Positions 13,830 to 32,441 of a stretch of DNA of 64,000 nucleotides are shown one piece after another (position 1 is the stretch's first letter; each line of letters starts with the position of its first letter). Position numbers and translations under genes: made by a program. The DNA comes from Streptomyces sp. SID12488 (GTDB lineage Bacteria; Actinomycetota; Actinomycetes; Streptomycetales; Streptomycetaceae), in contig NZ_JAAGLT010000009.1 of assembly GCF_010548275.1 (NCBI RefSeq), positions 186,001 through 250,000 of the forward strand. The letters are read 5' to 3'. The notes below the pieces were generated by a model. The model saw nothing but the letters and a program-made list of their open reading frames with translations, was not told the DNA's origin and did no database searches.

Positions 13830-13949
13830 CTACCCGGCGTGCAGCATCAGCCCGATCCCTACGACGAGCAGCCCGGCCGCGGCGATCCTCGGCGCCCCGA
13901 ACCGCTCCTTGAAGAACACGGCGCCGATGGCCGCGCCGACGATGATCGA
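13830..13949 (-). pseudogene. C-terminal fragment of EamA/DMT transporter, severed by element
   Basis: Last 40 codons (SIIVGAAIGAVFFKERFG... to TAG) of a drug/metabolite transporter. They continue exactly in frame the fragment at 31,713-32,441, which ends in RESS. Together they give a normal 282-residue EamA protein. The fragment has no start of its own and is presumably silent. The break at the TCG serine codon marks the integration point of the element. Confidence 0.9.
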
Positions 13950-13977
13950 TGTCATACGTTGCTCATACAGTAATTGG
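13930..13977. other. attL of the serine-integrase element
   Basis: Left junction. Chromosomal EamA sequence runs up to GA (13948-13949), then the element arm TGTCATACGTTGCTCATACA with GTAAT beyond it. The arm's GTCA, TGCTCAT and GTAAT blocks are mirrored in the attR arm. The recombinase start codon is only 30 bases inside. Confidence 0.8.
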
Positions 13978-13978
13978 C

Positions 13979-15427
13979 ATGAGTCGATCAAAGTTAGCGA
14001 GGGCCGCCATCACTCCAGGCGAGCCCGCCGCCATCTACTGCCGCATCTCGCACACCAGGGACGAGGACCAGACCGGAGTCGACCGGCAGGAACGCATCTG
14101 CCGAGAGATCGCCGAACGGCTTCAACTCCGCGTCGAGTCGGCCCACATCTACGTGGACAACAACCGTTCGGCATGGCAGCGCAACCGCAAGCGGCCGGGT
14201 TGGGAAGAGATGCTGAAGACGATGGGGGACGGAGAGATCCGGCACGTCATCGTGTACCACCCGGACCGCCTGATGAGGCAGCCCAAGGACCTGGAAGAGC
14301 TGCTGTCCATAGCCGACGACAAGCGCATCCTGCTGCACGGCGAGGCGAACCGACGCGATCTGTCGGACCCCGACGACCGGTTCATCCTCCGTATTGAGGT
14401 TGCCCACGCGTGCCGTTCTTCTGACGACACGTCACGGCGCCTGATCGACGCGCTGAAGGACAAGGCCCGGGAGGGCAAGCCGCACGTCGGCAATCGCCCG
14501 TACGGCTACACCCCCGACGGCCGCGCGATCATCGAGGAGGAGGCGGAGATCGTTCGAGAGGTCTTCCGCCGCTACCTTGACGGCGAGTCGCCGACCCGGA
14601 TCGCCCAGGAACTCAAAGCACGTTCGATCGTCTCGTCCAAGGGCAATACATGGCAGCCCCAGAACGTCCGCCATCTGCTGGCGTCGACCTTCGTGGCTGG
14701 CATTCGGATGCACAAGGGCGAAGAGGTGGGGGTGGGGACCTGGCCCGCCATCATCGACCGAGGGCAGTGGGACGAAGTGCAGCGGTTCAGCCAGTACAGG
14801 GCCGAGCGCTCCCGGGAGAGTCAGAAGCGGCCGAACCGACGTTACCTTCTGCGTGGTGTCGCTACGTGCGCTTGTGGGATGCGCATGGGCGGCACGAACA
14901 GTGTCCGATACGCCTACTACCGCTGTACCCGCGCTGGCAACGTCGGCCCGGAGAGGTGCAATCGCTCGATCGTGGCCGAGCCCCTCGAAGCGTTCGTGCG
15001 GGACGTGGCGATCAAGGTGCTCACCAAGCTGGACACCACCGGGCACGAACCCCCAACGACCGTACGGCCCGAAGCCGACGTCGAAGCGGACGAGAAGGAC
15101 CGGGCGAAGCTGCATGAGTTGAAAGAACTGTGGCTCAACGATGACGACTTCACGACCGCCGACTTCCAGGCCATGCGTGCGCCGGTCCTCAAGCGGATGA
15201 AGGAGCGCCAGCGCAGGACCGTGAAGCGACCGGTCGTCATCCTGAAGGGGATCGCAGGACCGGAAGCCGAGGCGAACTGGGAGCGATTGGAGCAGGAGGA
15301 GGACTACGCGCGCATGAACGCGATCTACCGGTTCCTCTTCTCTGCCGTGGTGGTACGCCCACCGACGAGGAAGGGCAGGGGGTTCGACACCGAGCGGGTG
15401 GACATCCAGCCGAACCCGCTCGACTAG
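13979..15427 (+). CDS. int: Large serine recombinase (site-specific integrase)
   Basis: 482 residues. An N-terminal resolvase domain (about 15-160) carries the catalytic Ser24 in AIYCRISHTRDEDQTG and the conserved DRLMRQPKDLEEL Arg block. A recombinase domain (about 170-290; NRPYGYTPDG to GQWDEVQRF) comes next, then a zinc ribbon (CACGMRMGG...YYRC...RC) near 305-345 and an acidic coiled-coil-like tail. ATG 13979 is preferred; the in-frame ATG at 13949 lies on the crossover point itself. It is placed next to attL, as usual for these integrases. It should recombine attP with the attB inside the EamA gene; excision would need a directionality factor that I cannot identify here. Confidence 0.93.
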   Translation: MSRSKLARAAITPGEPAAIYCRISHTRDEDQTGVDRQERICREIAERLQLRVESAHIYVDNNRSAWQRNRKRPGWEEMLKTMGDGEIRHVIVYHPDRLMRQPKDLEELLSIADDKRILLHGEANRRDLSDPDDRFILRIEVAHACRSSDDTSRRLIDALKDKAREGKPHVGNRPYGYTPDGRAIIEEEAEIVREVFRRYLDGESPTRIAQELKARSIVSSKGNTWQPQNVRHLLASTFVAGIRMHKGEEVGVGTWPAIIDRGQWDEVQRFSQYRAERSRESQKRPNRRYLLRGVATCACGMRMGGTNSVRYAYYRCTRAGNVGPERCNRSIVAEPLEAFVRDVAIKVLTKLDTTGHEPPTTVRPEADVEADEKDRAKLHELKELWLNDDDFTTADFQAMRAPVLKRMKERQRRTVKRPVVILKGIAGPEAEANWERLEQEEDYARMNAIYRFLFSAVVVRPPTRKGRGFDTERVDIQPNPLD

Positions 15428-16401: not shown

Positions 16402-16533
16402 TTATAGACTCTTCCGTGACGGGCCGAGGAGCCGCACGAGTCGTGCAGCGCTCTTCGGCCCGATCCGTGTAGGGAACTTGGCCGCCTGCCGCTCGACAGC
16501 CCGAGCCCACTGCTCGCTATGGCGTCTCGTCAC
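16402..16533 (-). CDS. Possible 43-residue protein coupled to rep
   Basis: The GTG at 16533 overlaps the rep stop codon (GTGA). It codes a basic 43-residue peptide starting MTRRHSEQWARAVERQ with a TAA stop. Codon use suits the host and the coupling is typical of real genes. The same bases also hold an imperfect hairpin (16421-16432 with 16450-16461), so the stretch could be a terminator for the HTH gene instead. No family recognised. Confidence 0.45.
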   Translation of the reverse strand: MTRRHSEQWARAVERQAAKFPTRIGPKSAARLVRLLGPSRKSL

Positions 16534-18010
16534 CGGCGTACCTCACGCTCTTCGCGTGCGACCTCGCGGTTTGTGGCGAGGTCTTCGGCGATGCCAGCCG
16601 CGATTAGAGCCGCGCCGGGGGTGTGACCCGAGCCGACATAACGCCAGTTGACGTCCGTGATCGTGCCGGGGATGCCGCTGCGGCCGACGTGGTGGGCGCG
16701 TTGGGCGCGCAGCGCGGCGTAGGTGGTGGAGTAGGCGCGGGATTTGGTGAGGATGTGGCCGCGGTAGCCGAGGGTGTGGGCCCAGGCTCGGAGGCGGAGC
16801 GGCTCGTACTCGGGGAGGCCGCCGAGGCGCCAGCACGCCCACATGAGGGTTCGGACGTGCTCGGTGACGGGTGCGGAGGCGATGTCGCCCCAGGTGGTGA
16901 TGGGGTGGTCGGTGCCGGCGCCTGTCTCGCTCGCGCCTTTGGTGACGTACTTGGCGACGTACGCGGCCACGGCGTCATCGTCGGGTCCGTCGCCGTCGGT
17001 GTGCAGTTGCCGGGCGTCGACCTGGACGCCCCAGCGCAGGGCCAGTTCGCCCACGGCCGGGCTGTATGGGGTGCGGACCAGGACGCGTCGGGCGGAGGCG
17101 CGTACGGCGTCGATGAGGAGTTGCGCCGTGCCCCAGGGCGGGGGTTGGTCGTCGGGTCCGTTCGGGCCGTCGAGGCGGACGACGGCGTGCACGTGGACGG
17201 CCGCGCGTTTCTGGTATTCGGCGACGCGGGCGAAGGAGAGCCGGGCGTGGTCGGCGAAGTGGGACTGGACGAGGCCTGCCGAGGTGGCGAGGCGGCGGCG
17301 GACGTCTATGACGAACCGGTCCCACAGCTTGGAGGCGTGCGCGTGCCACAGCACGTGGCCGGTGTAGTCGTAGCAGTCGGCGCACAGGGGTTGGCCGATG
17401 ACAGGAGCGTCCGGGGCGTGGACGGCGCCGCAGCCGAGGGGACGACCGTGTGCGCAGGTTCCGCCGTCGCGACGGGGGCGGCAACGGCCTTCCCCGGCAC
17501 GGTGGACGGGTCCGAAGGAGGGCGCGGTGAGGGTGATGAAGAGTCGGGGGCGGTTGCGGATGGTGGTGGGGATGTTCTTGCCGCCAAGGAGGCCCGCGCG
17601 GACGAGGTGGTAGGTGTCGCCCGCGTGCAGTCGTGAGCAGGGGGCGCAGACAGTCACGCGTCGGTTGCGGCAGCGGACGGAGAGGCGTTCGCCGGGTTCG
17701 GTACGGGTGTCGTAGTGGCGGAGGATCTCGCCGGTTGTCGCGTCCAGAGTCGTTGTCGACCCGGACAGGTGGACGGGGTGGGTGCAGCCGCCGGTTGCGG
17801 TGATCTGCTCCAGCCAGCGGGCGAATTGGGGGTGTTGGGCGATGTGGAGTGCGTCTCGGTCTGTTTCGGGGAGTTGGCGCAGGCGCGCCGTGCGGTCGAG
17901 GACGGCGCGCCTGTCGGCCGGGGTGATGTGTTCCGGGGTGATGGTGGTGACCTTCCGGGGTGAGCCGCCGCAGCGGCACGGATGAGGATGGATGGCGCGG
18001 TGTGGGTCAT
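16530..18010 (-). CDS. rep: Rolling-circle replication initiator (RepSA-like), apparent frameshift
   Basis: The main frame (16530-17951) codes about 474 codons of a RepSA-type initiator: a Cys pair in GGCTHPVHL, TTTLDATTGEILRHYDT, VCAPCSRLHAGDTYHL, the HUH metal motif in VHVHAVVRLDG, and the nicking-Tyr region AAYVAKYVTKG. No ATG or GTG opens this frame upstream of the GTG at 17657, which lies inside the conserved domain. An ATG at 18010 with a GGAG site opens the next frame (MTHTAPSILIRAAAAA). A shift of -1 at about 17951-17958 (CCGGAAGG) joins the two. This could be a sequence error, a mutation or recoding. Rep would nick the double-strand origin for element replication during transfer. Confidence 0.8.
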
Positions 18011-18162: not shown

Positions 18163-18186
18163 GGCGTACGTCCCTTTCTGCTGTGT

Positions 18187-18384
18187 CTAGAAGTGGGAGA
18201 AGCCGCTGAGGACCCAGGTGACGAAGCCGTTGATGGTGAGGCTGACGGGGGTCTGGCCGAGGTAGAGGCCGAACAGGGCGATGCAGACGGCTTCCCAGGC
18301 GCGGACGTCGCGGGAGCGGACGAGGAGGAAGGTGATGATCCCGAAGACCACGACGAGGGACACGGCGGCACCTGTGCTGATCAT
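18187..18384 (-). CDS. SpdB-like small membrane protein (intramycelial spread)
   Basis: 65 residues with two hydrophobic helices (about 5-22 and 32-60) and an RSRDVRAWE turn between them. The ATG overlaps the traSA stop (ATGA), so it is translationally coupled. Small membrane proteins at this spot in AICEs and Streptomyces plasmids are Spd proteins that help spread the element between hyphal compartments. The assignment is by position and topology only. Confidence 0.6.
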   Translation of the reverse strand: MISTGAAVSLVVVFGIITFLLVRSRDVRAWEAVCIALFGLYLGQTPVSLTINGFVTWVLSGFSHF

Positions 18385-19685
18385 TGGGAGTCTCCTTCGA
18401 GAGCGGTGAGAGCGCGGGTGACGGTGGGCAGTTCGGGCACCAGGCCCGCGTGCTTACGGGTGATCGCGATGGCTTCTTGGGTGGGGGTGAGGTGGGAGCG
18501 GGCGCGGTTCCAGCCGCCGTCAGGACCCGTACAGACGGCCACGCCCTGTTCCTGGGCGGTGATCGACTGAGCTATGGCCACGGCGTCTTTGTTGAGGTCG
18601 CCGAGGATCATTTCGGCGGTGCCGGGGTCGTTGACCCGGTGGCAGATGCGTCCGCCGAGCTGTGCCCGCAGTGCGGTGACGCCGGGGCCGAGGTCGGAGC
18701 CGACTCGCTGTCCGGCGACGACGAGGTGGATGCCGAGCGCGGCCCCGAGTTGCGCCAGTCGCAGGAGGAGGGTGGAGCACTGTTCGGCTTCTGCTTTGCT
18801 CTCGCGTCTGCCGTCGGACAGGTAGAGTTCCGCGATCTCGTCGACGATCACCACGACTGGTACGGGCCGGAATCTGACGGGCAGTTCCCAGATGGAGCGG
18901 GCGCCGGCCGTGCGGCAGACGCTCATCCGGTCCTGCATGTCGACCACCAGCGCGGCGAGCACCGCGACCGCCTCACGGCGGGAGGTCGCCAGTGCGCTGA
19001 GCCGGTCGGTGAACAGGCCGAGTTCCATGCCGCCCTTGCAGTCGATGCCGACCAGGGCGACGTGCTGCGGGGCGAGTTGGGTGATCAGCCGCGCCAGCAG
19101 GGTGGACTTGCCCGACCGGGTGGCCCCGGCGATCAGCCAGTGCGGCACCACCAGAAGATCCATCACCCACGCGCCCCCGCTCTCCAACACCCCGATCAGT
19201 GCGGACAGGAGTGCCGGCGGGGCGGTAGCGAGGCCGGGGCGTTGCAGCGGATCGGTGGCCGTTGCCGTCAGCAGCGCCAGCCCCCGTTCCGGTGAGGTGA
19301 CCCGGACCGCGTGGACCTTCCATGCGTGTACGAGGGCATCGGCCGCCTTGAGGTACATGGCGGGGGTCTGGCCCGCGTGCAGCCGCACGATCACGCTCAG
19401 CCCGGCACGCGTCGGGCGGGGGAACGAGATCTTCGGTGCGACCGGCCGCAGTGGATCGCCCTTGACGACCAGGTCACCGAGGAGCCCTCGCGAAGGACGG
19501 CGGGACACGGCGAGGTCGGTGAGCATCGCGATCTTGCGCCAGGTGAACACCACCCGCCATGCAGCGGCCGGGTATCCGGCGAGGTACCAGTGCCAGACCG
19601 GGCAGTGACGCCGCAGCAGATCACCGCCGCCGAGCACCCAGACGAGAAGGGCCAGCCCGAGGGTGAGGGCGATGATGCCGGTCAT
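18381..19685 (-). CDS. traSA: TraSA/TraB-type FtsK-like DNA translocase
   Basis: 434 residues: two N-terminal membrane helices (about 3-20 and 30-50), a middle domain, then the FtsK/SpoIIIE motor with Walker A GATRSGKST (187-195), Walker B VVIVDEIAEL (278-287) and a late GGRICHRVNDPGTAEMILGD block. Such proteins form hexamers that move double-stranded DNA between mycelia through clt sites, unlike relaxase-based conjugation. The start ATG 19685 shares a base with the upstream gene's stop. The longer frame upstream is a shadow of that gene. Confidence 0.92.
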   Translation of the reverse strand: MTGIIALTLGLALLVWVLGGGDLLRRHCPVWHWYLAGYPAAAWRVVFTWRKIAMLTDLAVSRRPSRGLLGDLVVKGDPLRPVAPKISFPRPTRAGLSVIVRLHAGQTPAMYLKAADALVHAWKVHAVRVTSPERGLALLTATATDPLQRPGLATAPPALLSALIGVLESGGAWVMDLLVVPHWLIAGATRSGKSTLLARLITQLAPQHVALVGIDCKGGMELGLFTDRLSALATSRREAVAVLAALVVDMQDRMSVCRTAGARSIWELPVRFRPVPVVVIVDEIAELYLSDGRRESKAEAEQCSTLLLRLAQLGAALGIHLVVAGQRVGSDLGPGVTALRAQLGGRICHRVNDPGTAEMILGDLNKDAVAIAQSITAQEQGVAVCTGPDGGWNRARSHLTPTQEAIAITRKHAGLVPELPTVTRALTALEGDSQ

Positions 19686-20023
19686 CACGCGCCACCGGCC
19701 TTTAAGGCGCCGGTGATGGGGGTGATGGCGTCGGCGCGGAAGCTGACGCCGTGCCGGTCGCCCATCGCCCACATGAACGCGGTGAGCCCGGTGACCTTGA
19801 GGATCATGCCTTCCTCGATGCCTTTGGGTTCGCCGGTGACGGCGATCTCGATGACGGAGATGCGCCGCCGGTCCTGGCGCACGGTGACGGCGACGGTGTA
19901 GACGAGGTTGCCGTCCCGGTCCTTCTTGATCTCCTGTGTCTCCTGGTTGCTGATCTTTGCTTCGGGGGCGATGGCGCAGCGCAGTACGCCGAGCCGCCCG
20001 GTGTCCACGGGAATGGACTGCAT
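19685..20023 (-). CDS. SCO3933-family regulatory protein (element regulator)
   Basis: 112-residue beta-rich protein with the pattern I associate with the SCO3933 regulatory family of Streptomyces AICEs: an IPVDTGRL start, DRDGNLVYTVAVTV, then ILKVTGLTAFMWAMGDRHGVSFRADAITP. GGAGG lies 8 bases before ATG 20023. It is the first gene of the tra-spd-rep transcript and the probable target of the GntR repressor whose operator-like repeats lie just upstream. In pSAM2 the gene at this position (pra) activates replication, integration and excision, so a similar role is possible. Confidence 0.65.
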   Translation of the reverse strand: MQSIPVDTGRLGVLRCAIAPEAKISNQETQEIKKDRDGNLVYTVAVTVRQDRRRISVIEIAVTGEPKGIEEGMILKVTGLTAFMWAMGDRHGVSFRADAITPITGALKAGGA

Positions 20024-20071
20024 GCCTGTGGCCTCCTGGCCGATTGGGGACGCCTGACATATTCAGACGTC

Positions 20072-20967: not shown

Positions 20968-21008
20968 GCGACAACGGCCATCGGTCGAAACAGCCTTCAC
21001 TTCCTCAA

Positions 21009-21056: not shown

Positions 21057-21195
21057 GCGGCGTGGCCGCCGATCCCGTCCAGGCGCCAGCCGCCCCACAC
21101 CGCAGCACGCCAGGGGAGTTGAGGCGCCGACCGGCAGTGGTGGGCCGGGGCGTGGTGGGCTGGTGGTCGACGGCCTCCGAGACTTTAGGCAGCCA

Positions 21196-21305: not shown

Positions 21306-21374
21306 CAGCTCCCGCCCAAAGTCTCTGCGGCCGGCGACGTGCCCACCCGCACCACTCACCAGCGAGAACGCTCC

Positions 21375-21665: not shown

Positions 21666-21738
21666 TGTGTCCACCTCTGTCCTGGTCCAGGTAACTGATC
21701 GTCAACTCTCTTTGGTCCAGGGCGGATGCACAGCACAA

Positions 21739-21822
21739 CGACCCCGGTACCATCAGGCACCGGGGGTCGCTGTACTCCCTTCCGGACCACCCCAGTTGCT
21801 TCCAGGCGCGGGGGTGGTCCGG
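21739..21822. terminator. Two strong hairpins in a 320-bp gap
   Basis: CGACCCCGGT / ACCGGGGGTCG (21739-21769) and CCGGACCACCCC (21782-21793) / GGGGTGGTCCGG (21811-21822). The second is followed by TCTTGCGTTTT on the plus strand. They lie between two minus-strand genes, so the first could end the HATPase transcript. Nothing else is clear in 21,666-21,984. Confidence 0.5.
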
Positions 21823-21984
21823 TCTTGCGTTTTCGGTTGTGAAGCGCGGCCCCTTGCTACTCGGGTGGGGAACCCGATGACCCAAGCCAAGAGGCCGCGC
21901 CCCGTACGCCGGAGGGATGACCCTCCAGCCCCCGGACCGTCACCCGCTCCCGAGAGAGCAAACGAGGACGTGACGGCCCGAAGA

Positions 21985-22554: not shown

Positions 22555-22731
22555 GACACAAACTCACCGTCTCCAGTCGCGTCCGCCGAGACGCTCCCGG
22601 CAGGGTGGACCGAGGATGCATCCCCTGTACCGGCTGTCGCTCCCCCCTCTTGGGGACCCCCCTCGTGGGTACACTCGCAAGACGAACGCAGAAGAGAAGA
22701 CACGTCTGGTCAATCACGATGGGGAAGTGAG

Positions 22732-24084
22732 ATGACCGAAGCAGCGCCGACACCGGCAGCCCTGCCGCCGCACGTGCTGGAACGCGCGGACGTACGGTCG
22801 GCAGTCGCCAACCACGACTTCGGCGAAGTCTTCAGACTCGCCCGACTGCACGGCAAGATCAGTTACGCCAAGATCGCCGAAGCCGTCGGCTACAAGCGCG
22901 AGCACATCGGCCTCATGGCCCGACCGGAGACCGACGGCAAGGGCACACGCCCACGGATCACCCAGCACCGCAAGATCCTCGAAGTGGTGGACGGGCTACG
23001 CATCCCCGGCCCCCTTGCAGGACTCGCCCCACGTCCGTGGGAGCTGGCCCGAAGCGCCAGTGTCTCCGTGCCGCAGGACCCGAGCACCTTGATCACAGAG
23101 GCTGGCGCAGGACTCTGGGACATCGCCGAGCTACTACGGCGAACGGAGATGTCCAATATCAACAGCGCAGCCCTGGAGTCGATCGAGCAGGGCATTGATC
23201 AACTGGCCCGGGCTTATCCGTATGCAGATGCCGACTACCTGCACGAGCGCACCCGCAACGGCTTGCAGTACGTCACCAAGCAGCTCGAAGGCCGGACGAC
23301 GCTGCGCCAGCACCGGGAACTCCTGGTCGACGCAGGCTGGCTCTTCCTGCTGAACGCGTGCGTGCAGTACGACCGGGGTCAGCGGGAGGCCGCCAACCTC
23401 AGCAAGGCCGCCGCCCTGCGGATCGGCGACGAGGCCGGCCACGGCGAGATCAAAGCATGGGCGTTCGAGATTGACGCGTGGTTCGCCCTCACGCAAAGCC
23501 GCTGGCCAGACATGCTTGATGCAGTCGAAGCAGGGCACATTGCCGATCAGACGCACTCCGTCGGCGTGCAGTTGTACGCCCACAAGGCCCGCGCAGCCGC
23601 ACGCATGGGAGACGCCCGCCTGGTCCGTGACTCCCTGGACGCCGGACGCGCCCGCCTGGACCGGCTACCCCGCCCGGATCACCCCGAACATCACTTCATA
23701 ATCGACCCGGACAAGTGGGACTTCTACGAGATGGACGCCTACCGCCTCCTCGGAGACGACGAACGCGCCGCCACCCACGCCCGCTCAGTCATCCGCATCA
23801 GCACTGGCCCCGACGGAACCGAGATCTCCCCCATGCGCGCCGCAGAGGCCCGCCTCACACTCGGAGTCGCCGCCGCCCGAACCGGCGACATAGAAGAAGC
23901 CGTCGCTATGGGCACCACGGCGCTCGAAGCCGACCGCAAGTCGCTGCCGTCCCTGCTTTTAGTCGCTGACGAGCTGGACAAGGAACTTCGTTCCAGATAC
24001 CCCCGCGAGGCCTCAACACTCCACTTCCATGAGCAGGTCACGGCCATCAAACGAGGCACAGCCAGGCCCGAACTGCCGTTCTGA
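22732..24084 (+). CDS. XRE-like regulator with TPR-like C-terminal domain
   Basis: 450 residues. An N-terminal HTH region (about 25-80; LARLHGKISYAKIAEAVGYKREHIGLMAR) is followed by a long all-helical part (about 115-440) with TPR-like pairs such as LRQHRELLVDAGWLFLLNA and AAEARLTLGVAAARTGDIEEAV. GGGGAAG lies just before ATG 22732. The fold resembles Streptomyces regulators that sense peptides or partners through TPRs. It is paired divergently with the HATPase gene. Longer upstream frames run antisense to that gene and are rejected. Confidence 0.8.
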   Translation: MTEAAPTPAALPPHVLERADVRSAVANHDFGEVFRLARLHGKISYAKIAEAVGYKREHIGLMARPETDGKGTRPRITQHRKILEVVDGLRIPGPLAGLAPRPWELARSASVSVPQDPSTLITEAGAGLWDIAELLRRTEMSNINSAALESIEQGIDQLARAYPYADADYLHERTRNGLQYVTKQLEGRTTLRQHRELLVDAGWLFLLNACVQYDRGQREAANLSKAAALRIGDEAGHGEIKAWAFEIDAWFALTQSRWPDMLDAVEAGHIADQTHSVGVQLYAHKARAAARMGDARLVRDSLDAGRARLDRLPRPDHPEHHFIIDPDKWDFYEMDAYRLLGDDERAATHARSVIRISTGPDGTEISPMRAAEARLTLGVAAARTGDIEEAVAMGTTALEADRKSLPSLLLVADELDKELRSRYPREASTLHFHEQVTAIKRGTARPELPF

Positions 24085-24292
24085 GCACTATCGCCTACGG
24101 GTCAAGTCCCGCTATGGGCGGGAACTGGGCTCGGCTGTCGACAGTAGCCCAAGGCTACGATGCCCGCTCAGAGGACTCCAAAGTGTCGAAATCAAGGTAA
24201 TTTCCTGAAATCGCTGCAAGGCGCCAGAAGGTCCTTATAGGATCACTCTCCTGTCAGGTGACCGGATCGGCATGCGGTGGAGCTGGGGAAAA

Positions 24293-26410
24293 GTGCGCAT
24301 CACCAAGGTAAAGATTACAAACTATCGAGGGCTTGAGTCAGTTGAGATTCCCCTAAGTCGATTTGGTTGCGTTATCGGCGAAAACAACGCAGGAAAGTCC
24401 TCGGTTTTCCAGGCGCTGAACACTTTTCTTCGCGGAAGCGCGATGGACGCCTCAGAATTTCTCTCAAAAACCCAATCAGTTCGCGTTCAGGTTTCTTTCT
24501 CTGACATTGATGCCGACGACCTCGCCCGGCTCGATTCCCAGCATCGCGCAAAGATCGAGAAAGAGGTTGAAGATGGCTCGTTGACTCTGTTGAGGGTTTA
24601 CTCTTCACCAGGAAAGGGGGAAATTCGAGTACTGTCCAAAGTGCCACGTGATAGCCGTTTCAGTCAAACGGCTTTAGATGAAACGCTGAAAGTGGGGCTT
24701 TCAGCGGAAGAGGTTTCCGCCAACGTGGCGCATACGTATCCGGAAATCCATGCGAAGCTGAACGGTAAGATCACGAAGGCTGCCGTCAGGAGGGAGTTTG
24801 AGGAGATCGTATCAAGCCTGCCACCGGAGGAAATGACGGAGGGAGAAGGAAGCAAACTACCCACAGGGATTGATCGGTCCATTTCGGCCCTACTTCCGGA
24901 TGTTATCTACATCCCGGCGGTCAAAGAGCTTAATGACGAAGTGAAGACGACGGATAGTTCTACCTTTGGCAAGCTACTTGGGTTGCTTTTTGGACAGATT
25001 GAACATCAGATGCCCAACCTTCAGAAATCCTTTGACGACCTGCATCGACATTTGAATGTAGTGATCGATGATCAGGGGAATGAGGACGATCAGCGACTTA
25101 AAGAAGTGCGCGATATCGAGAAACTGATCGAGCGCAACCTACAGGAAGCCTTCCCTCGTGCGGATGTGCGGCTCGACATCCCTCCGCCAGCCCTCCGTAC
25201 GCTTTTGTCAAGTGCTGAAATTTCGATTAATGATGGAGTTCCAGGTCATTTTCGTACGAAGGGCGACGGTCTGCGTCGGTCGGTCACATTCGCTATTCTT
25301 CGAGCCTACGTAGACCAGAAGAAGAAGCAGATAAAAGGCCATTCCTCTGCGACAGAGCGTCCGACAGTACTGCTCTTCGAAGAGCCAGAGGTATTTCTGT
25401 ATCCGCGAGCGCAACGGAAGCTTTTTGATGCTCTCAAATTCTTCTCTCAGTACAATGACGTGCTGGTAACTACCCACTCCTCGGCTTTTTATGGCCCAAG
25501 AGAAACGGGCACTTTTGTAAAAATGATCAAGAATCACCAGGTCGACCCACCCGTAAGTCGCGCACACGTAATTGACCTGAGTGATATCGACGCTAGAGAT
25601 CAGTTTGAGATCATTAAGCACGAGAACAATGAGGCAGCCTTCTTTGCCGATTCAGTTTTCCTGGTGGAAGGTCCGAGTGATTGCCATCTAGTCCCACATG
25701 TAGCGAAGACGTTGAACCCAGAATGGGACTTTCAAAAGCACGCTGTGGCAATCGCCAAAGTCGAGGGAAAGGGGAGCATTGCACGGTATCGTGGCTTCTT
25801 CGAAAAATTCGAGATGCAAGTCTCTGTGTTGGCTGATCTAGATGCTGTCCTTGAAGGCTTTGATAAGCTCGGGGCTAGTGACCGCTGCGCAGAAATTCGC
25901 GGTCGACTGCTTCCCCTCGTTGATAGAGATGCGAAATTGGTGGAAGAGAACCAGATTCGTGGCGAAGTATTGAAGAAGATGAGGAAGAGCGGAGAGGTTC
26001 AAGGCCTCTGGCAGCAAGCCACTGACCTGCATTCCGCTTTCGCTAAGAAAGAATGCACATGGGAGGAGCTTAACTCTGCCGTTAGCGCATTCTTTGATCG
26101 TGCTAGTTCCCGCACAAAGCGAGCCGTGCTGCGCGATGCAATTTCCGCAGATTTGCGCAAGGCTAAGCTCGAATTGCTGTCTGCCCTGAGGGCGGAGAAT
26201 ATTTTCGTCTGGGAGCGTGGCGCGATCGAGGACTACTACCCTCCATCCGTTTATCTTTCTTCCGGAAATAAGAATGTTCGAGCTCAGCGCTTCTGTGAGA
26301 GCTACAACACTGCCGATTCCCTTAGAGGGCTTCCCGCCTTTGCGGACTCCGATAGCTGTGAGTTCGACTTGATCTTTTCCAAATTCTTCGACGATGTTAC
26401 TGAAAAGTAG
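24293..26410 (+). CDS. OLD-family ATP-dependent nuclease (ABC ATPase plus TOPRIM), class 1-like
   Basis: 705 residues. The N-terminus MRITKVKITNYRGLES leads into Walker A GENNAGKSS (K35), signature-like KGDGLRRSV, Walker B LLFEEPEVFLYP (E363-E364) and TTHSSAFY. The C-terminal TOPRIM domain has E459 in FLVEGPSD and D515-L-D517. Family members cut DNA and several protect against phage. No UvrD/GajB partner follows, so it resembles single-gene class 1 OLD. The start may instead be ATG 24272. Base composition is clearly AT-richer than its neighbours (many TTT, AAA, ATT codons), pointing to recent transfer from lower-GC DNA. A TAGGAT-like -10 lies about 60 bases upstream. Confidence 0.88.
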   Translation: MRITKVKITNYRGLESVEIPLSRFGCVIGENNAGKSSVFQALNTFLRGSAMDASEFLSKTQSVRVQVSFSDIDADDLARLDSQHRAKIEKEVEDGSLTLLRVYSSPGKGEIRVLSKVPRDSRFSQTALDETLKVGLSAEEVSANVAHTYPEIHAKLNGKITKAAVRREFEEIVSSLPPEEMTEGEGSKLPTGIDRSISALLPDVIYIPAVKELNDEVKTTDSSTFGKLLGLLFGQIEHQMPNLQKSFDDLHRHLNVVIDDQGNEDDQRLKEVRDIEKLIERNLQEAFPRADVRLDIPPPALRTLLSSAEISINDGVPGHFRTKGDGLRRSVTFAILRAYVDQKKKQIKGHSSATERPTVLLFEEPEVFLYPRAQRKLFDALKFFSQYNDVLVTTHSSAFYGPRETGTFVKMIKNHQVDPPVSRAHVIDLSDIDARDQFEIIKHENNEAAFFADSVFLVEGPSDCHLVPHVAKTLNPEWDFQKHAVAIAKVEGKGSIARYRGFFEKFEMQVSVLADLDAVLEGFDKLGASDRCAEIRGRLLPLVDRDAKLVEENQIRGEVLKKMRKSGEVQGLWQQATDLHSAFAKKECTWEELNSAVSAFFDRASSRTKRAVLRDAISADLRKAKLELLSALRAENIFVWERGAIEDYYPPSVYLSSGNKNVRAQRFCESYNTADSLRGLPAFADSDSCEFDLIFSKFFDDVTEK

Positions 26411-26491
26411 GCATTTCGGCGGCGCTCAGGCACTACCGGGAGACCACGGCGACATCAGACGACAACGAGCGCAAGGCTCGAAAGCTGCTGA

Positions 26492-26528
26492 CCGAGCCTC
26501 CGGCCCCATCATGGGGCCGGAGGCTCGG
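26492..26528. terminator. Bidirectional terminator between the OLD gene and its convergent neighbour
   Basis: Perfect 16-base arms, CCGAGCCTCCGGCCCC (26492-26507) and its complement (26513-26528), with a five-base loop. The stem covers the last codons of the convergent gene, so that protein's Pro/Ala/Glu-rich tail may exist because of the terminator. Confidence 0.85.
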
Positions 26529-27639
26529 CCGGCGCCAAGGCTGGCCTCGTCGGGCTGTCCAACTGATGATGGGCAACGATGGCCGCGACAGAGTTCGGTA
26601 CGTCGAGGTACCCAGCGTGCATCAACAACTCTTCCAACACCGGCCGCACGACAGCCTGTACCGGTTCATCTGGCTTGCGGGATAGTAGGCGGTCCGCAGC
26701 GAAGCCGATGCTGGGGCAGTAGGCGTACCGGTTCTTGGCCCGAGCGAAGGAGTCCGAGCCCGGCACGTCGAGTGAATGCCATTCAACTTGCCCTTTAGCG
26801 CTGCTCATACGGCCGGTTACTCCAATGCGCCAGTCATGCCGACGGCGCTTCTCGCTCAGCCGCTTGCTATACAGATTGCGGTACTCGCTCCCCTGCGTCA
26901 CCTGATGTACCCGTCGGATAACTGCCACCACCTCGCCCAATGGCAGCGGGTCGGCTACCTCATCGATCACAGCCATGTGCAACCCCCAGCGGAGATCCAG
27001 CAGCCCGGAGCCAAACACCTCCAGATGGTGACGCTCAAAGGGACCGAACTCGCCATCGTCCATCACGACGAAACGCACTCTGTCTTCGCCGGAGTAGCTC
27101 ACCTCGTACGGCAGGTCGCCCAAGACTCTGCGCGCCACCCTCAGGGCACGGGCAGCCAACTCGACAGACGGTACCGGCTTCACCGCACGCGTAGGTCCGA
27201 CGCACACCCTCGCCACGAAGCGTTCCGAGTAGTCACGGTCCATCCCGCCACACGCGGCGATGGTGGTGTGGTCACCCTGTGCCGTCTGCTTGGCCCAGAA
27301 CCAACCGGACTGAAGCAACCACCACGTCTTCTCGAAGATATTGCCCGCCGCGTCAACCTCGCCAAAAGACATGTGACCGTCCCGCCGTGAGCGCTTATGT
27401 TGGAGGCCGGTCCGGTAGTCCTGGCGGAGCAGTGAGTCTGCCTTACGCGGCATCACCAAGAGTAGTGGGACGCTCTGACAGCCAGGCTTGCGCAACAGTT
27501 CTGCGCGGCCAGCGTCTCCGAGGACGCCGCTCAACCACTCTGCGCGCTGCGCCAGGAGATTCCGAGCCCTCAGCAGGTACGCGGGACAGCCTGTCAGTTG
27601 GCTGCGCCGCAGACAAAGAGGTCTACGAGCGCGCCTCAT
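26509..27639 (-). CDS. Unrecognised 376-residue protein beside the OLD nuclease
   Basis: I do not recognise a family. The protein is soluble, basic at the N-terminus (MRRARRPLCLRRSQ) and Trp/Asp-rich in the middle (FEKTWWLLQSGWFWAKQ, FVVMDDGEFGPFERHHLEVF, DLRWGLHMAVIDEVAD). The C-terminal half has KRRRHDWRIGVTGR and SFARAKNRYAYCPSIGF. The start is uncertain: ATG 27639 gives the full frame, ATG 27453 (MPRKADSLLRQ) a 314-residue form. It converges with the OLD gene and ends in their shared terminator. Its 5' end abuts the internal att-like repeat. The location among defence-like genes makes a defence or counter-regulation role possible but unproven. Confidence 0.6.
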   Translation of the reverse strand: MRRARRPLCLRRSQLTGCPAYLLRARNLLAQRAEWLSGVLGDAGRAELLRKPGCQSVPLLLVMPRKADSLLRQDYRTGLQHKRSRRDGHMSFGEVDAAGNIFEKTWWLLQSGWFWAKQTAQGDHTTIAACGGMDRDYSERFVARVCVGPTRAVKPVPSVELAARALRVARRVLGDLPYEVSYSGEDRVRFVVMDDGEFGPFERHHLEVFGSGLLDLRWGLHMAVIDEVADPLPLGEVVAVIRRVHQVTQGSEYRNLYSKRLSEKRRRHDWRIGVTGRMSSAKGQVEWHSLDVPGSDSFARAKNRYAYCPSIGFAADRLLSRKPDEPVQAVVRPVLEELLMHAGYLDVPNSVAAIVAHHQLDSPTRPALAPAEPPAP

Positions 27640-27660
27640 TCCTCATCCAGTCCCCGGGCC

Positions 27661-27694
27661 AGCGAAGTTATGCATGAGCACGACTTGACTGACG
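27661..27694. repeat. Internal copy of the right att arm
   Basis: AGCGAAGTTAT, then GCATGAGCACG and ACTTGACTGACG, match the attR arm at 31,680-31,717 with one substitution and a 4-base deletion (TACC missing). The GA dinucleotide sits at 27691-27692. Beyond it the sequence differs from the EamA gene. The repeat bounds the trypco2/NB-ARC module on its left. Confidence 0.85.
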
Positions 27695-27913
27695 CTTGTG
27701 CAGCACGGTGGCAGGGCACACGCGGAGGTTGCGCCATACCGTCGGAGATCACGTCCGGCGTCGCACACAGAGCGTCGCCGGCTCGTTACGTCGGCGGTCT
27801 GTTGCGGTTGCGTCCTGCCCCTGTGACAGATCGTCATTCCGGGGCATTTCTCCGGTCAGCAGCCGTTACCCTGCCCACCTGACGTCAGCTCAGCAGATCA
27901 GGGGGAACCATCA

Positions 27914-28231
27914 ATGCCGCAGGAGCCGTGGGTTGGATTGTCCGAGGCCATCAGCGCGATCCGGGCCGAGTTGGAGCAGGCTATGACCGACGGTCACGGG
28001 CATACGATCCAGTTCCGCACCGGCCCGGTGGAGATGGAGTTTGCGGTGGACGTCAAGAAGGACGCCCAGGCCGGCGCCAAGGTGTCCATCCTGCCCTGGA
28101 GCGCCAGCGCCGAGGCGAAAGCCGGATACGCGGCCGGCACCACATCCCGACTGAAGATCACCTTGCAGCCGGTCGACGAACACGGCCAGGACCAGAAGAT
28201 CGGCGCCCGCACCCCCCAGCGCCCTCAGTAG
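27914..28231 (+). CDS. Trypsin-co-occurring domain protein (trypco2-like)
   Basis: 105 residues with the trypco2 pattern: an N-terminal LSEAISAIRAELEQAM helix, then beta strands IQFRTGPVEMEFAVDVKK and a Gly/Ala-rich stretch, ending in SRLKITLQPVDEHGQ. GGGGGA lies 7 bases before ATG 27914. It precedes by 55 bases the trypsin-NB-ARC-TPR gene, the linkage for which the domain was named in studies of NTPase-based conflict systems in multicellular bacteria. It may act as an adaptor or substrate of the protease. Confidence 0.75.
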   Translation: MPQEPWVGLSEAISAIRAELEQAMTDGHGHTIQFRTGPVEMEFAVDVKKDAQAGAKVSILPWSASAEAKAGYAAGTTSRLKITLQPVDEHGQDQKIGARTPQRPQ

Positions 28232-28286
28232 TAGAGCAGCCCCGCTGGCAGCCGCTTGGTGAGATGCAGAGAACAGGGGTTCGCGA

Positions 28287-31200
28287 GTGGACGTGCAACG
28301 GGTGATGGAGATCTGGGACCCGGCGGGCCAGATCGCCGGGAGCGGATACCTCATCACAGACAGCTTGGTCCTCACCGCGTATCACAACATCCAGCAGGCG
28401 GGATCATCCTCCGAGCGGGCGGTGGAGGTGCGGCGGCTCGCCCGGCATGGAGAGCCGCAGGCCACATGGGTGGCAGCCGAGGTGTTGTGGCCGGAGCAGC
28501 CGCCCGACATCGCGCAGGATCCGCACACCGACGCTGCCCTGCTACTCATCACCGATTCAACCTGGCAGCCTCCTGACTCAGCGGCGCCGGTGCGTTGGGG
28601 ACGTCTGCCAGCTCCCTCGCCCGGTGCGGTCGAGGCGCGGGTCGGCTGTGTCGCGGTGGGGTTCCCTGAGTCCGACCAGCGGGACGGAACCCGGGACACC
28701 AAGGAGATCCGCGGGCACATAGAGACCCTGAGCGGCCTGAAATCAGGCCTGATCACCGCACACATTGACGGAGTCGCCACACCCAGCGCGACCGATGCAG
28801 TGTCGTCCTGGTCCGGGGCATCCGGAGCAACTCTGTTCTGCGGGAACCTGCTCGCCGGGGTCCTGACCACCGACCGCGCGGGAAGATATCCAGGCAACCA
28901 GCTCATCGCCGTTCCCCTGGCCACCCTCGCCGCGCGCCCCGGCTTCACCAGCACCATCAAAGCCGCAGGCAATCCACTGGCCTTGGAAGACATCACCACC
29001 CCTGCCAGCAGCAGCCACCCCCCATCAGGCCCTTACGACGTGGACGCATCCCCGGGCCTGCACAACCTCCCTGGCCTTCCCACCGAAGTCTTCGTCGGCC
29101 GAGAAGAAGCCCTCACCACCCTCGCCACCGCCATGGAACGAGACTCGAAAGCCATTACCCAGACCGTTCACGGTCTTGGCGGTGTCGGCAAGACCACCCT
29201 GGCCCTCCACTACGCCCACACGCACCGGCACTCCTACCAACTGGTGTGGTGGATTCACGCCGACACCCCTGAACAGATCATCACTGACCTCGCCGGCCTG
29301 ACCACCAGCATCCACGGCGGCGCCACCGGCCGCACCAGCGCGGAGGACGCGGACTGGGCCATCAGATGGCTCCAGATCCACCCCGGCTGGCTCCTCATCC
29401 TCGACAACGCCGAACAGCCCGACACTATCCGCCATCTGATAGGCCAGCTCCATCACGCCGGACGCCACCTGATCACCAGCCGCTTCACGGACGGCTGGCC
29501 CAGCACTCCCCTCGCCCTTCCCCTCCTCACCCCGGACGCCTCACTCGACCTACTCACCCAGCTCACCCGCCGGACCGACGCCGACAGCCAGCACCACGCC
29601 CGCCTGCTCGCCGACGAGCTCGGGCACCTGCCTCTCGCCCTCGAACAAGCCGGCGCCTTCATCGCCCAGAGTCACATCGCCCTCGGCGCCTACCGGGAGC
29701 TGCTCCGCCAATATCCGGCCCAGACCACCAGCACCGCCCCTGCGGGCAGCATTCCTCAGCGCACCATGGCCCGCATCTGGCGCATCACCCTCGACGCCCT
29801 CCACCGCACCACCCCTCTGGCCGTCGACATCCTGCGCACCGCCGCCTGGTACGCCCCCACCGCCATCCCCCGCACCCTCCTCGCACCCCTAACCGACACC
29901 CCTGTCGGCTACGCCGAAGCCCTCAGCCAGCTCGCCGCCTACAACATGATCACCCTGGACACCGACACCCTCAGCATCCACCGCCTCATCCAGACCATCG
30001 CCCGCACTCCCGACGTCACCACTGCAGACGACGCAGACCCCCACCGCACCCACGGCACCATCACCGCGGCCCGCCACCACGCCACCACTCTCCTGCTCAC
30101 TGCACTGCCCGAGCAACCAGACACGAACGTGGCCGGCTGGCCCGCCTGGCGCGCTCTGCTCCCTCACGCGGAAGCCCTCCTCAGCGCCGCCGAGCCCACC
30201 CACGACACTGATGACACTGACCTCCTCCTCACCAACACTGCCGCTTACCTGCGCGGCCAAGGGCAGATCACTCAGGCCATCACCTACCAGAAGCGCTCGG
30301 TGGCCACCTCCGCTCGCCTCCACGGCCCCGACCACCTCTCCACGCTCACCTCCAGCAACAACCTCGCGTATGCCTACGAGTCGGCAGGGGACCTCGACCG
30401 GGCCATCCCCCTCTACGAACAGACCTTCACCGACCAAATGCGGATCCTGGGCAAAGACCACCCCCACACCCTCGCCTCCCTCAACAACCTCGCGAGCGCC
30501 TACCGGGCGGCAGGGAACCTCGACCGGGCCATCCCCCTCTACGAACAAAACCTCACCGACCAAATGCGGATCCTGGGCGAAAACCACCCCCACACCCTCG
30601 CCTCCCTCAACAACCTCGCGAGCGCCTACCGGGCGGCAGGGAACCTCGACCGGGCCATCCCCCTCTACGAACAAAACCTCACCGACCGCATGCGGATCCT
30701 GGGCGAAAACCACCCCGCAACCCTCACCTCCCGCAACAACCTCGCGAGCGCCTACCGGGCGGCAGGGAACCTCGACCGGGCCATCCCCCTCTACGAACAA
30801 AACCTCACCGACCACATGCGGATCCTGGGCGAAAACCACCCCCACACCCTCGCCTCCCTCAACAACCTCGCAGGCGCCTACGAGTCGGCAGGGAACCTCG
30901 ACCGGGCCATCCCCCTCTACGAACAAAACCTCACCGACCAAATGCGGATCCTGGGCGAAAACCACCCCGACACCCTCGCCTCCCGCAACAACCTCGCAGG
31001 CGCCTACGCGTCGGCAGGGGACCTCGACCGGGCCATCCCCCTCTACGAACAAAACCTCACCGACCAAATGCGGATCCTGGGCGAAAACCACCCCGAGACC
31101 CTCACCTCCCGCAACAACCTCGCGTATGCCTACGAGTCGGCAGGGGACCTCGACCGGGCCATCCCCCTCTACGAACAGACTCTCACCGACCGCATGCGGA

Positions 31201-31526
31201 TCCTGGGCGAAAACCACCCCGACACCCTCGCCTCCCTCAACAACCTCGCAGGCGCCTACGCGTCGGCAGGGGACCTCGACCGGGCCATCCCCCTCTACGA
31301 ACAAAACCTCACCGACCGCATGCGGATCCTGGGCGAAAACCACCCCGACACCCTCGCCTCCCGCAACAACCTCGCAGGCGCCTACCGGGCGGCAGGGGAC
31401 CTCGACCGGGCCATCCCCCTCTACGAACAGACCCTCACCGATTGCCTACGGGTCTTCGGCGAAAACCACCCCACCACCCGTGTTGTCACCGCCAATCTCA
31501 CCCACGCGAAATCGACCAACGCCTGA
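28287..31526 (+). CDS. Trypsin-like protease / NB-ARC NTPase / TPR conflict protein
   Basis: 1079 residues, NLR-like architecture. The protease domain (1-225) has His33 (LTAYHN), Asp82 (HTDAALL) and Ser179 (SGASGAT), so the triad is complete. The NB-ARC STAND NTPase (about 268-600) has a GREEAL start, P-loop GLGGVGKTT (297-305), Walker B-like LLILDNAEQ and LGHLPLALEQAGAFI. After a helical linker come nine almost identical 42-residue TPRs (686-1063). GTG 28287 has AGGGG upstream. Such proteins are thought to sense an invader through the repeats, oligomerise with ATP and trigger the protease. Paired with trypco2. Confidence 0.88.
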   Translation: MDVQRVMEIWDPAGQIAGSGYLITDSLVLTAYHNIQQAGSSSERAVEVRRLARHGEPQATWVAAEVLWPEQPPDIAQDPHTDAALLLITDSTWQPPDSAAPVRWGRLPAPSPGAVEARVGCVAVGFPESDQRDGTRDTKEIRGHIETLSGLKSGLITAHIDGVATPSATDAVSSWSGASGATLFCGNLLAGVLTTDRAGRYPGNQLIAVPLATLAARPGFTSTIKAAGNPLALEDITTPASSSHPPSGPYDVDASPGLHNLPGLPTEVFVGREEALTTLATAMERDSKAITQTVHGLGGVGKTTLALHYAHTHRHSYQLVWWIHADTPEQIITDLAGLTTSIHGGATGRTSAEDADWAIRWLQIHPGWLLILDNAEQPDTIRHLIGQLHHAGRHLITSRFTDGWPSTPLALPLLTPDASLDLLTQLTRRTDADSQHHARLLADELGHLPLALEQAGAFIAQSHIALGAYRELLRQYPAQTTSTAPAGSIPQRTMARIWRITLDALHRTTPLAVDILRTAAWYAPTAIPRTLLAPLTDTPVGYAEALSQLAAYNMITLDTDTLSIHRLIQTIARTPDVTTADDADPHRTHGTITAARHHATTLLLTALPEQPDTNVAGWPAWRALLPHAEALLSAAEPTHDTDDTDLLLTNTAAYLRGQGQITQAITYQKRSVATSARLHGPDHLSTLTSSNNLAYAYESAGDLDRAIPLYEQTFTDQMRILGKDHPHTLASLNNLASAYRAAGNLDRAIPLYEQNLTDQMRILGENHPHTLASLNNLASAYRAAGNLDRAIPLYEQNLTDRMRILGENHPATLTSRNNLASAYRAAGNLDRAIPLYEQNLTDHMRILGENHPHTLASLNNLAGAYESAGNLDRAIPLYEQNLTDQMRILGENHPDTLASRNNLAGAYASAGDLDRAIPLYEQNLTDQMRILGENHPETLTSRNNLAYAYESAGDLDRAIPLYEQTLTDRMRILGENHPDTLASLNNLAGAYASAGDLDRAIPLYEQNLTDRMRILGENHPDTLASRNNLAGAYRAAGDLDRAIPLYEQTLTDCLRVFGENHPTTRVVTANLTHAKSTNA
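30342..31475 (+). repeat. Nine 126-bp near-identical repeats coding the TPR array
   Basis: Nine units of exactly 126 bases (42 codons), each reading TL-x-S-x-NNLA-x-AY-x-x-AG-x-LDRAIPLYEQ and then LTD-x-MRILGENHP. Variation is confined to a few positions: Y-ES/RA/AS-AG, D-Q/R/H-M and HP-H/A/D/E. Such homogeneity implies recent unit duplication or gene conversion, and copy number could change by recombination. Confidence 0.95.
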
Positions 31527-31712
31527 GGCACCCCACCAGCGAGCTGGGACCTTCGCTTCCAACAGCGTCCATTTTCACGCCCGATCAACTCCCCTGGTCG
31601 CACGCCACCAACCAATGCACACCCACAGTGACCATCGCGACATACACACACGAGAGCAACCTCACCAAGCCCCCTGAACAGCGAAGTTATTACCGCATGA
31701 GCACGACTTGAC
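31527..31712. other. Non-coding right end of the element
   Basis: No gene seen. It contains CA-rich stretches and ends in the att arm at 31,680. No clear terminator hairpin follows the NB-ARC gene. Confidence 0.6.
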
Positions 31713-31735
31713 CGACGATTCCCTGAGTGCCGCCA
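31680..31735. other. attR of the serine-integrase element
   Basis: Element arm (ATTACCGCATGAGCACG, ACTTGACC), then GA (31714-31715), then EamA codons. Joined to the attL arm it forms an attP in which GTCA, TGCTCAT, a C and GTAAT occur in mirror image about the GA. That is the dyad form expected for a serine integrase. Confidence 0.85.
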
Positions 31736-32441
31736 CGGGGGCGAGTTCCGCCCGGGTCTGCGCCCACAGCACCAACCCGTACGCCGCCACGGACAGCGCA
31801 CCGCCGAGCAGTCCGACGGCGGCGAACGGCCGTACCGTCGCCAGGAATTGACCCCGCCACCGGTACAGCGCGTAAGCGGGGATCGCGATGCCCTCCAGGG
31901 CCATCAGCCAGGCGATGTAGGAGAGCGAGGAGCCCGAGGCCCGTACGCCCAGCCCGTCGACGACGGTGTACGCGGCGATGGTCAGCCCGGTCGCCAACGC
32001 GGCCACGATCGCCGCCCAGTTGGGCCGGTTCCCTCGCAGCCCCCACAGCGCGACGCCGGTAAGTCCCGCACAGGACACGGTGATTCCGGCCGCCGCCCAG
32101 CCGTCGGGTACCTCGTGGGCGAACACGGCGGCGAGGACCGTGACGACGAGGGGCGCGGTACCGCGCGCGATCGGATATGCCTGCCCGAAGTCGCCGAGCC
32201 GGAACGACCGCATGAGCAGCACGTAGTACGCGATGTGGATGAGCGCCGACGCGACGAGATACGGCCAGGCCCCGGCAGCGGGAAGCGGCAGAAACGGCAG
32301 AGCGACCAGCCCGAGAACCATCCCGCCGCCCGCGATGAGCGTGAACCCGACCAGCTTGTCGGTGATGCGGTGCGCGAGCGCGTTCCAGCAGGCGTGCGTG
32401 ACGGCGGCGAGCAGTACGGCGGCGGTGACCGTCGGAGTCAC
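31713..32441 (-). pseudogene. EamA/DMT transporter, N-terminal 243 codons, disrupted by the element
   Basis: Starts at GTG 32441, overlapping the stop of the upstream deacylase gene. Eight or so hydrophobic helices, two EamA units, and ELAPVAALRESS at the break, where the second unit's last helices should follow. The missing 39 residues are at 13,830-13,949. As it stands the frame reads 17 more codons through the att arm (VKSCSCGNNF...) to a stop at 31,662, giving a truncated 259-residue protein that probably lacks function. Confidence 0.9.

What the first reader, a model, noticed from the sequence alone, without database searches (positions are those of the whole stretch)
27661..31717. Defence module of 4.02 kb bounded by direct repeats of the att arm
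An att-arm copy at 27,661-27,694 (one substitution, 4-base deletion) matches the attR arm at 31,680-31,717. Between them lie only trypco2 and the trypsin-NB-ARC-TPR gene. Distances between GA dinucleotides are 13,743 and 4,023 bp. This suggests cargo added at attR by a separate integrase-mediated event (tandem accretion), or a formerly independent element that could be mobilised in trans. The bases right of the inner GA differ from EamA, so the inner site could be an old attR from another target.
Basis: partly seen in the sequence, partly recalled or inferred. Interest (0 to 1): 0.85.

Follow-up and report, generated by a model that had tools for sequence, protein, structure and literature searches.

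The report
Defence genes captured by stacked elements
A Streptomyces mobile element carries an immune-like gene pair between two copies of its own right-end attachment site, most likely because one element landed against the remains of a sibling and made it cargo; stacking is known for other elements, but this serine-integrase version with fossil attachment sites looks like a new variant.

Summary
The arm copy left of 27,691 is a real P arm of this element family (48/56 bases to its own attR arm; no other match in the 9.6-Mb genome). It is no closer to its own attR arm than to arms of other elements, so it is not a recent local copy. The element is an AICE with a serine integrase in an EamA gene. 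Of 8 EamA loci with an attR, 3 hold a second, damaged arm; the other two bound a different small cargo gene. A fourth locus (MBT65) is a 4.2-kb remnant without integrase, its left edge attB-like, its right edge attR. Best reading: accretion. The inner site is a fossil attR of the front element; the trypco2/trypsin-NB-ARC-TPR module plus outer attR is the right-hand remainder of a sibling, now cargo of a 17.8-kb unit. What the right half of the inner site was is not settled. Independent mobility of the module is unlikely. Excision was not tested.

The parts
13830..13949 (-). 3' part of the split EamA gene, ending in attL (core GA 13948-13949)
   Evidence: Sequence; EamA-like sequence up to the core in 5 siblings and uninterrupted in 6 empty sites
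13950..13980 (+). P' arm of attL
   Evidence: Lined up with P' arms of siblings and of the plasmid pNL15-2K-Cir
13949..15427 (+). Large serine integrase (Resolvase + Recombinase + zinc ribbon); start codon not verified
   Evidence: Pfam; near full-length relatives, 72-84% identical, in 7 other genomes of 392
16530..17657 (-). RepSA-type replication initiator
   Evidence: Pfam PF20199, E 3e-126
18381..20060 (-). FtsK/SpoIIIE-type transfer protein
   Evidence: Pfam PF01580
20188..20967 (+). GntR/UTRA regulator
   Evidence: Pfam
24272..26410 (+). OLD-family ATPase-TOPRIM protein, cargo of the front element
   Evidence: Pfam OLD-like_TOPRIM; PADLOC Old 6.6e-91
26509..27639 (-). ORF without known family, last ORF of the front element
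   Evidence: No Pfam or PADLOC match at E 0.001
27633..27692 (+). Inner site: P arm with a 4-base deletion plus core GA 27691-27692; read as a fossil attR
27693..27913 (+). Right flank of the inner site: not P', not demonstrably EamA; 10-mer shared with an isochorismatase-gene attR
27914..28231 (+). Trypco2 protein
   Evidence: Pfam PF19631, E 1.3e-21
28287..31526 (+). Trypsin-like peptidase / NB-ARC / TPR protein (1079 aa)
   Evidence: Pfam (the Trypsin_2 match is below the curated cut-off)
30341..31479 (+). Nine 126-bp TPR-coding repeats, 92% matches
31654..31715 (+). Outer site: P arm without indels plus core GA 31714-31715; attR
31716..32441 (-). 5' part of the split EamA gene
   Evidence: Pfam PF00892; same attR junction in 7 of 392 genomes including this one

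Best explanation
This is a composite AICE made by site-specific accretion. The front part (13,950-27,692) is one element whose own right end was the inner site, a P arm and core that I read as its attR; the right half of that site is unidentified but is not P'. The back part (27,693-31,715), with the trypco2 and trypsin-NB-ARC-TPR genes and the outer attR, is the right-hand remainder of a sibling element that has lost its integrase and transfer genes. Because a serine integrase joins attP to attB, the front element must have entered an attB-like site at the left edge of that remainder, either a regenerated attB (as MBT65 suggests) or an alternative attB inside it. The element would now leave by attL x outer attR as a 17.8-kb circle that carries the defence-like genes, while the inner site decays. 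Shown: homologous arms, core position, separate arm lineages, recurrence, damage to the inner arms. Inferred: order of events, integrase as agent, present mobility, defence function.
For: Inner arm scores 20.1 against a P-arm matrix that excludes the window (top of 15 shuffles 8.6). Identity of inner to own outer arm 48/56, to G130 48/55, G363 46/53, pNL15 46/53; in G322 the inner arm is 44/57 to its own outer arm but 52/60 to the window's outer arm and 53/61 to MBT65. Two more double-arm loci: G322 (57-60 bases at 86-87%, E 6e-11 to 1e-12) and G109 (decayed; 21.9 against a top of 19.9 in 100 shuffles), with the same 0.69-kb 'MADVWN' block between the arms. DNA shared by G322, G109 and G342 starts at the 6th (G322/G109), 11th (G322/G342) and 15th (G109/G342) base right of the inner cores; DNA left of it differs. 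MBT65: EamA sequence exactly to the core, then a B'-like flank (0.2% of 4000 controls score as high; P' 34%), 4,195 bp, then attR; no integrase relative at E 1e-80 in that genome. The three inner arms carry a 4-bp deletion (window), a 1-bp insertion plus substitutions (G322), and many substitutions including the core (G109).
Against: The right flank of the window's inner site is not significantly like EamA (8% of 4000 controls as good), nor are G322's and G109's (21%, 26%). The isochorismatase match is a 10-mer found after the fact; whole alignments are as good in 6-16% of controls. 5 of 8 loci show no second arm (an ungapped matrix that could miss arms with indels, as it nearly missed G322's, 12.9; the gapped BLASTs added none), and G342 has the MADVWN gene at its attR without an inner arm. 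G109's inner arm is only just above chance by score, and in a background scan four viral stretches that I had picked by the arm pattern scored 22.4-28.6. One substitution of G322's inner arm (CATC for CATG) also occurs in G024's attR, so not every change is a lesion. G322's left end is off the contig, and no close integrase was found in that genome. No stand-alone front element was found. Reads were not available.
Confidence: 0.72

Rival explanations
1. Cargo was inserted beside or inside the right end by illegitimate or homologous recombination between siblings; the integrase played no part, and the arm copy came along with the cargo.
For: Cargo at the right end differs between members; in G109 recognisable arm sequence stops about 31 bases left of the core; G342 has the same right-end gene without an inner arm.
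Against: Shared DNA in G322, G109 and G342 begins at the 6th to 15th base right of the inner core, MBT65 breaks at the core, and G322's inner arm is closer to arms of other elements than to its own outer arm.
Confidence: 0.18
2. The module is a separate integrative unit (a cis- or trans-mobilisable element with its own two attachment sites) that the integrase can cut out and insert alone.
For: It is bounded by two copies of the same arm; MBT65 has a 4.2-kb island at the same EamA site without a recognisable integrase.
Against: No P' arm found between the sites; two directly repeated attR sites are not a productive pair for deletion in a published model (PMC3783163, passages); the inner arm has lost 4 bases of the conserved outer P arm; none of the 7 EamA loci is a solo copy of this module.
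Confidence: 0.05
3. The second arm is a local duplication of attR or a chance resemblance, and the module is ordinary cargo.
For: Right-end cargo is variable in this family; 1 of 100 shuffles of the window also gave two loose matches to the core 17-mer.
Against: Both window copies of the 17-mer are exact; BLAST E 1.7e-8 in the own genome; 15 shuffles reach at most 8.6 against 20.1; inner and outer arms are as far apart as arms of different elements.
Confidence: 0.05

Closest known systems
ICE-CIME and IME-CIME accretion (three-step model in PMC5704250, passages)
   Same: An element decays to a remnant with att sites but no integration or transfer genes; a newcomer integrates at its edge; the pair has an internal att site and can move together
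   Different: In that model the newcomer integrates in the resident's attR, which suits tyrosine integrases (recalled); here a serine integrase needs an attB, and the internal site is a damaged attR-type site
AICE / defective-AICE accretion in a Streptomyces population (PMC9513070, passages)
   Same: Same genus and class of element, stacked at one site with a remnant; mobilisation in cis proposed
   Different: Their illustrated case is at a tRNA-Arg gene; here a protein gene, a serine integrase, and only the right-hand remainder of the older element
PAISt of Streptomyces turgidiscabies (PMC4057263, passages)
   Same: Three att sites divide an island into modules
   Different: Tyrosine recombinase, 8-bp palindrome, 105 + 569 kb; modular excision was detected by nested PCR
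Composite SCC islands of staphylococci (recalled, no call)
   Same: Serine recombinases, repeated att sites inside, elements without recombinase genes
   Different: Unrelated Ccr recombinases and target
NTP-dependent conflict systems with trypsin and Trypco2 (PMC7159879, passages)
   Same: Trypco2 gene next to a trypsin domain fused to another domain
   Different: In the passages seen the pairing is described for VMAP proteins of vWA-MoxR systems; here an NB-ARC-TPR protein, and no function tested

Membership tests
AICE | Site-specific integrase, plasmid-type Rep and FtsK-like Tra in one integrated element | tested here: met
   Integrase, RepSA, FtsK/SpoIIIE by Pfam; attL and attR here, empty sites elsewhere
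AICE | Exists as a replicating circle with attP | tested here: inconclusive
   Sibling pNL15-2K-Cir (84% integrase) is an 11.6-kb plasmid record with uncut attP; not tested for the window's element
CIME (cis-mobilisable element) | No integration or transfer genes | tested here: met
   Only trypco2 and the NB-ARC-TPR gene recognised between the sites
CIME (cis-mobilisable element) | Flanked by its own attL and attR | tested here: not met
   Right: attR. Left: an attR-type site of the front element; no P' arm found. Works like a CIME; not filed as one
CIME (cis-mobilisable element) | Excises and transfers together with the adjacent element | not testable with these tools
   Needs reads or PCR
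[quoted passage not shown]
   Inner P arm and core in the window, G322 and (decayed) G109
[quoted passage not shown]
   MBT65 at the core; G322 and G109 against each other and G342 at the 6th to 15th base right of it; no unbroken relative for the window
Trypco2-trypsin conflict systems | Trypco2 beside a trypsin domain in an NTPase protein | tested here: met
   PF19631 E 1.3e-21; Trypsin_2 25.7 bits (below its cut-off 27.6); NB-ARC 25.0 bits (cut-off 23.5)
Trypco2-trypsin conflict systems | Shown anti-phage activity | not tested
   PADLOC gives only weak trypsin-region matches (LmuA 6e-5, Avs1b 3e-4)

The most novel reading that the evidence does not exclude
A cargo-capture ratchet for a directional integrase: an older element decays to a right-end remnant whose left edge becomes an attB again (MBT65 state); a new sibling integrates there, making two tandem attR sites; loss of the inner site by small indels then locks the remnant's immune genes into the new element's transferable unit. 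The window, G322/G109 and MBT65 would be stages of one cycle that keeps reshuffling defence cargo at the right end of this AICE family.
Probability: 0.4. Interest if true: 0.66.

Novelty: new variant of a known kind. Interest (0 to 1): 0.5.

Why it matters
Tandem accretion is well described for elements whose integrase can use the resident's att site. Serine integrases accept attP x attB, so how their elements stack and trade cargo is less obvious. This family offers a testable answer, with sites at single-base resolution, empty sites, a sibling plasmid with uncut attP, three double-arm loci and a remnant without a recognisable integrase. It also points to the right end of an AICE as a place where predicted NLR-like, caspase, TIR and OLD-type immune genes collect.

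Tried and rejected
EamA relic right of the inner core: by eye 17 of 23 bases match with one gap, but whole-flank alignments and an anchored profile put it at chance level (8% of controls), so I dropped it. P' on the right of the inner core (stacking by attP x attL): rejected. Isochorismatase relic: suggestive only. Viral contigs: no relative of the integrase; the arm pattern gave 12 stretches, which I did not read one by one; they entered the background scan, where they are biased by how they were picked, as are two true family sites (L057, L090) that I had not removed. A second draw of 395 genomes gave no new carrier at E 1e-200. One search spent 387 genomes on the end of a DUF742-type cargo gene and told nothing about the arms. 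My pattern had three N where the arm has four: it found both window sites at 3 mismatches but none of G322's, so its empty answer for 10 genomes with module relatives is weak. G322's EamA locus was fetched as a candidate empty site; searches show that it is occupied. G030, whose element lies in EamA the other way round, is left out of the count of 8 loci.

Full report
What was claimed.

Check of the observation. The sequence is as described. The two halves of the arm are found as direct repeats 4,019 and 4,023 bases apart, the difference being the 4-base deletion. Against the 9.6-Mb genome the inner copy matches only itself and the attR, 80% over 57 bases, E 1.7e-8. The 17-base core occurs twice in the window, both times exact; with three mismatches allowed shuffles give 0.15 on average, and 1 of 100 shuffles also gave two. 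In the genome-contig collection (84,980 species) a form of the arm with 18 specified bases occurs in 8 stretches: S. hirsutus, S. dioscori and Streptomyces sp. MBT65, all at an EamA attR, and five unrelated records. The repeat is therefore specific.

What the element is. Between 13,950 and 31,715 lie a large serine integrase, a RepSA initiator, an FtsK/SpoIIIE transfer protein and a GntR regulator: an AICE. It splits an EamA transporter gene. In 392 genomes of the genus, 8 including the own one have a near full-length integrase at 72-100% identity and one more a fragment; 7 of 392 have the P-arm/EamA attR junction by an exact pattern. Of 8 other EamA loci that I fetched as candidate empty sites, 6 read ..GATCGACGA.. 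across the site; G322 turned out to be occupied and G094 gave no alignment under my limit. A sibling plasmid record, pNL15-2K-Cir (NZ_CP130632.1, integrase 84% identical), has an uncut attP.

The inner site is a P arm of another lineage. A matrix made from P arms, leaving the window out, gives the inner site 20.1 in spite of its deletion, where 15 shuffles reach at most 8.6. Over about 60 bases the inner arm matches its own outer arm 48/56, and G130, G363 and pNL15 equally well (48/55, 46/53, 46/53). A recent duplication would be closer to its own outer arm. In G322 the contrast is sharper: inner to own outer 44/57, inner to the window's outer 52/60, inner to MBT65 53/61.

Recurrence. Of 8 EamA loci with an attR (7 plus MBT65; G030, inserted the other way round, is left out), 3 hold a second arm: the window, G322 and G109. 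G322's inner arm is plain by BLAST (57-60 bases, 86-87%, E 6e-11 to 1e-12), though its 1-base insertion lowers the ungapped score to 12.9. G109's is decayed (21.9; the top of 100 shuffles is 19.9, of 200 shuffles of the cargo part 16.1), but it stands at the same place beside the same block as in G322. In both, a 0.69-kb block with a gene of unknown family ('MADVWN'; no Pfam match) lies between inner and outer site. The same block ends G342 without an inner arm. Shared DNA begins at the 6th (G322/G109), 11th (G322/G342) and 15th (G109/G342) base right of the inner cores, and the DNA to the left differs between G322 (NB-ARC-TPR, caspase-like and EACC1 genes), G109 (VMAP/caspase, AAA and kinase genes) and G342. 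The other 5 loci (G130, G295, G342, G363, MBT65) show no second arm by the ungapped matrix, nor in the gapped BLASTs.

A remnant. In MBT65 (NZ_JAENRY010000132.1, read as L107 and L108) EamA sequence, with an apparent frameshift some 60 bases away, runs exactly to the core; then comes a flank that resembles the EamA right half-site (0.2% of 4000 control flanks score as high) and not P' (34%), then 4,195 bases, then an attR. No relative of the integrase at E 1e-80 was found in that draft genome. This is what would remain if a front element left by attL x inner attR, and equally what a newcomer would need as landing site.

What the inner right flank is. It is not P', which argues against a stack made by attP x attL. 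It is not demonstrably EamA (8% of controls as good). A sibling in G024 uses another target: its attL and attR lie in the two halves of an isochorismatase-family gene (unbroken relatives L135 and L136). The window's inner flank shares an exact 10-mer, TGCAGCACGG, with that right half; 12 of 8000 control flanks do so, but longer alignments are at chance level (12% of 5000 and 16% of 4000 controls as good, 6-7% in two other controls, 11% of 3000 at protein level).

Mechanism. Serine integrases join attP to attB, and attL to attR with a directionality factor; in the published model other pairings are not productive for deletion, and a P half-site is 25 bp with zinc-ribbon contacts at positions 16-24 (PMC3783163, passages; another integrase). 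So the stack needs an attB-like site left of the remnant: regenerated, as MBT65 suggests, or an alternative one inside the resident followed by loss of one of the duplicated integrase-rep-tra blocks. The window's inner deletion removes about positions 21-24 (my count); G322's insertion falls between the two contact regions; G109 has lost the core GA. The three inner arms are thus damaged, while the outer arms keep the conserved pattern without indels, G295's being the most divergent. I infer that the outer site is the one in use, that the present mobile unit is 17.77 kb, and that the module is locked-in cargo. Excision from the inner site would leave the module behind.

The module. Trypco2 (PF19631) and a 1,079-residue protein with trypsin-like, NB-ARC and TPR regions resemble the published pairing of Trypco genes with trypsin domains in conflict systems (PMC7159879, passages). 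PADLOC finds only weak trypsin-region matches. Relatives at 65-75% DNA identity, plus one 63-base match at 95%, occur in 10 other genomes of 392; none reaches left of 27,903, so the cassette also exists apart from these arms. Defence is predicted, not shown.

Comparison with what is in print. Accretion of ICEs or IMEs with integrase-less remnants (CIMEs) is a standard model (PMC5704250, passages); AICE stacking with remnants is described in Streptomyces (PMC9513070, passages); modular excision from three att sites was shown for PAISt (PMC4057263, passages). My search for CIME + serine integrase + accretion gave 3 papers, of which I saw passages of one; two related searches listed 20 of 273 and 10 of 128 papers, which I did not read through. 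No case like this was visible in those titles and abstract openings. I therefore call it a new variant of a known kind.

Noticed in passing
L056 (G024:C56) about 2,100 and L134 (G024:C86) about 1,500: An 81% identical integrase sits in an isochorismatase-family gene instead of EamA, so the family has at least two targets; both share TGATCGA up to the core.
   Followed up: partly
L092 (NZ_CP130632.1): pNL15-2K-Cir, filed under Kutzneria buriramensis but described as a Streptomyces sp. NL15-2K plasmid, is a sibling with uncut attP; its record topology is given as linear.
   Followed up: partly
L054 (G130, S. hirsutus): A 3.1-kb element at the EamA site with a full-length integrase but no match to the window's rep or tra genes: a decayed or minimal form.
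   Followed up: partly
L055 (G030:C25): A relative (72% integrase with one in-frame TAA) lies in EamA with the integrase next to the other gene half; beside it a TPR protein about 31% identical to the window's.
   Followed up: no
L124 1-4144 (G322): Partial NB-ARC-TPR gene, caspase-like gene and EACC1 gene left of G322's inner site: a second immune-type cassette in the same family's right end. No close integrase was found in this draft genome.
   Followed up: partly
window 30341-31479: Nine 126-bp (42-residue) TPR repeats at 92% matches, probably a recently expanded array inside the NB-ARC protein.
   Followed up: no
window 26492-26528: A near-perfect 37-base palindrome (97% to its own reverse complement) at the facing 3' ends of the OLD-family gene and ORF 26509-27639, perhaps a terminator.
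   Followed up: no
window 13157-13735: The gene next to the EamA target looks like an isochorismatase-family protein (by eye, no family search), the same family as the second integration target in G024.
   Followed up: no
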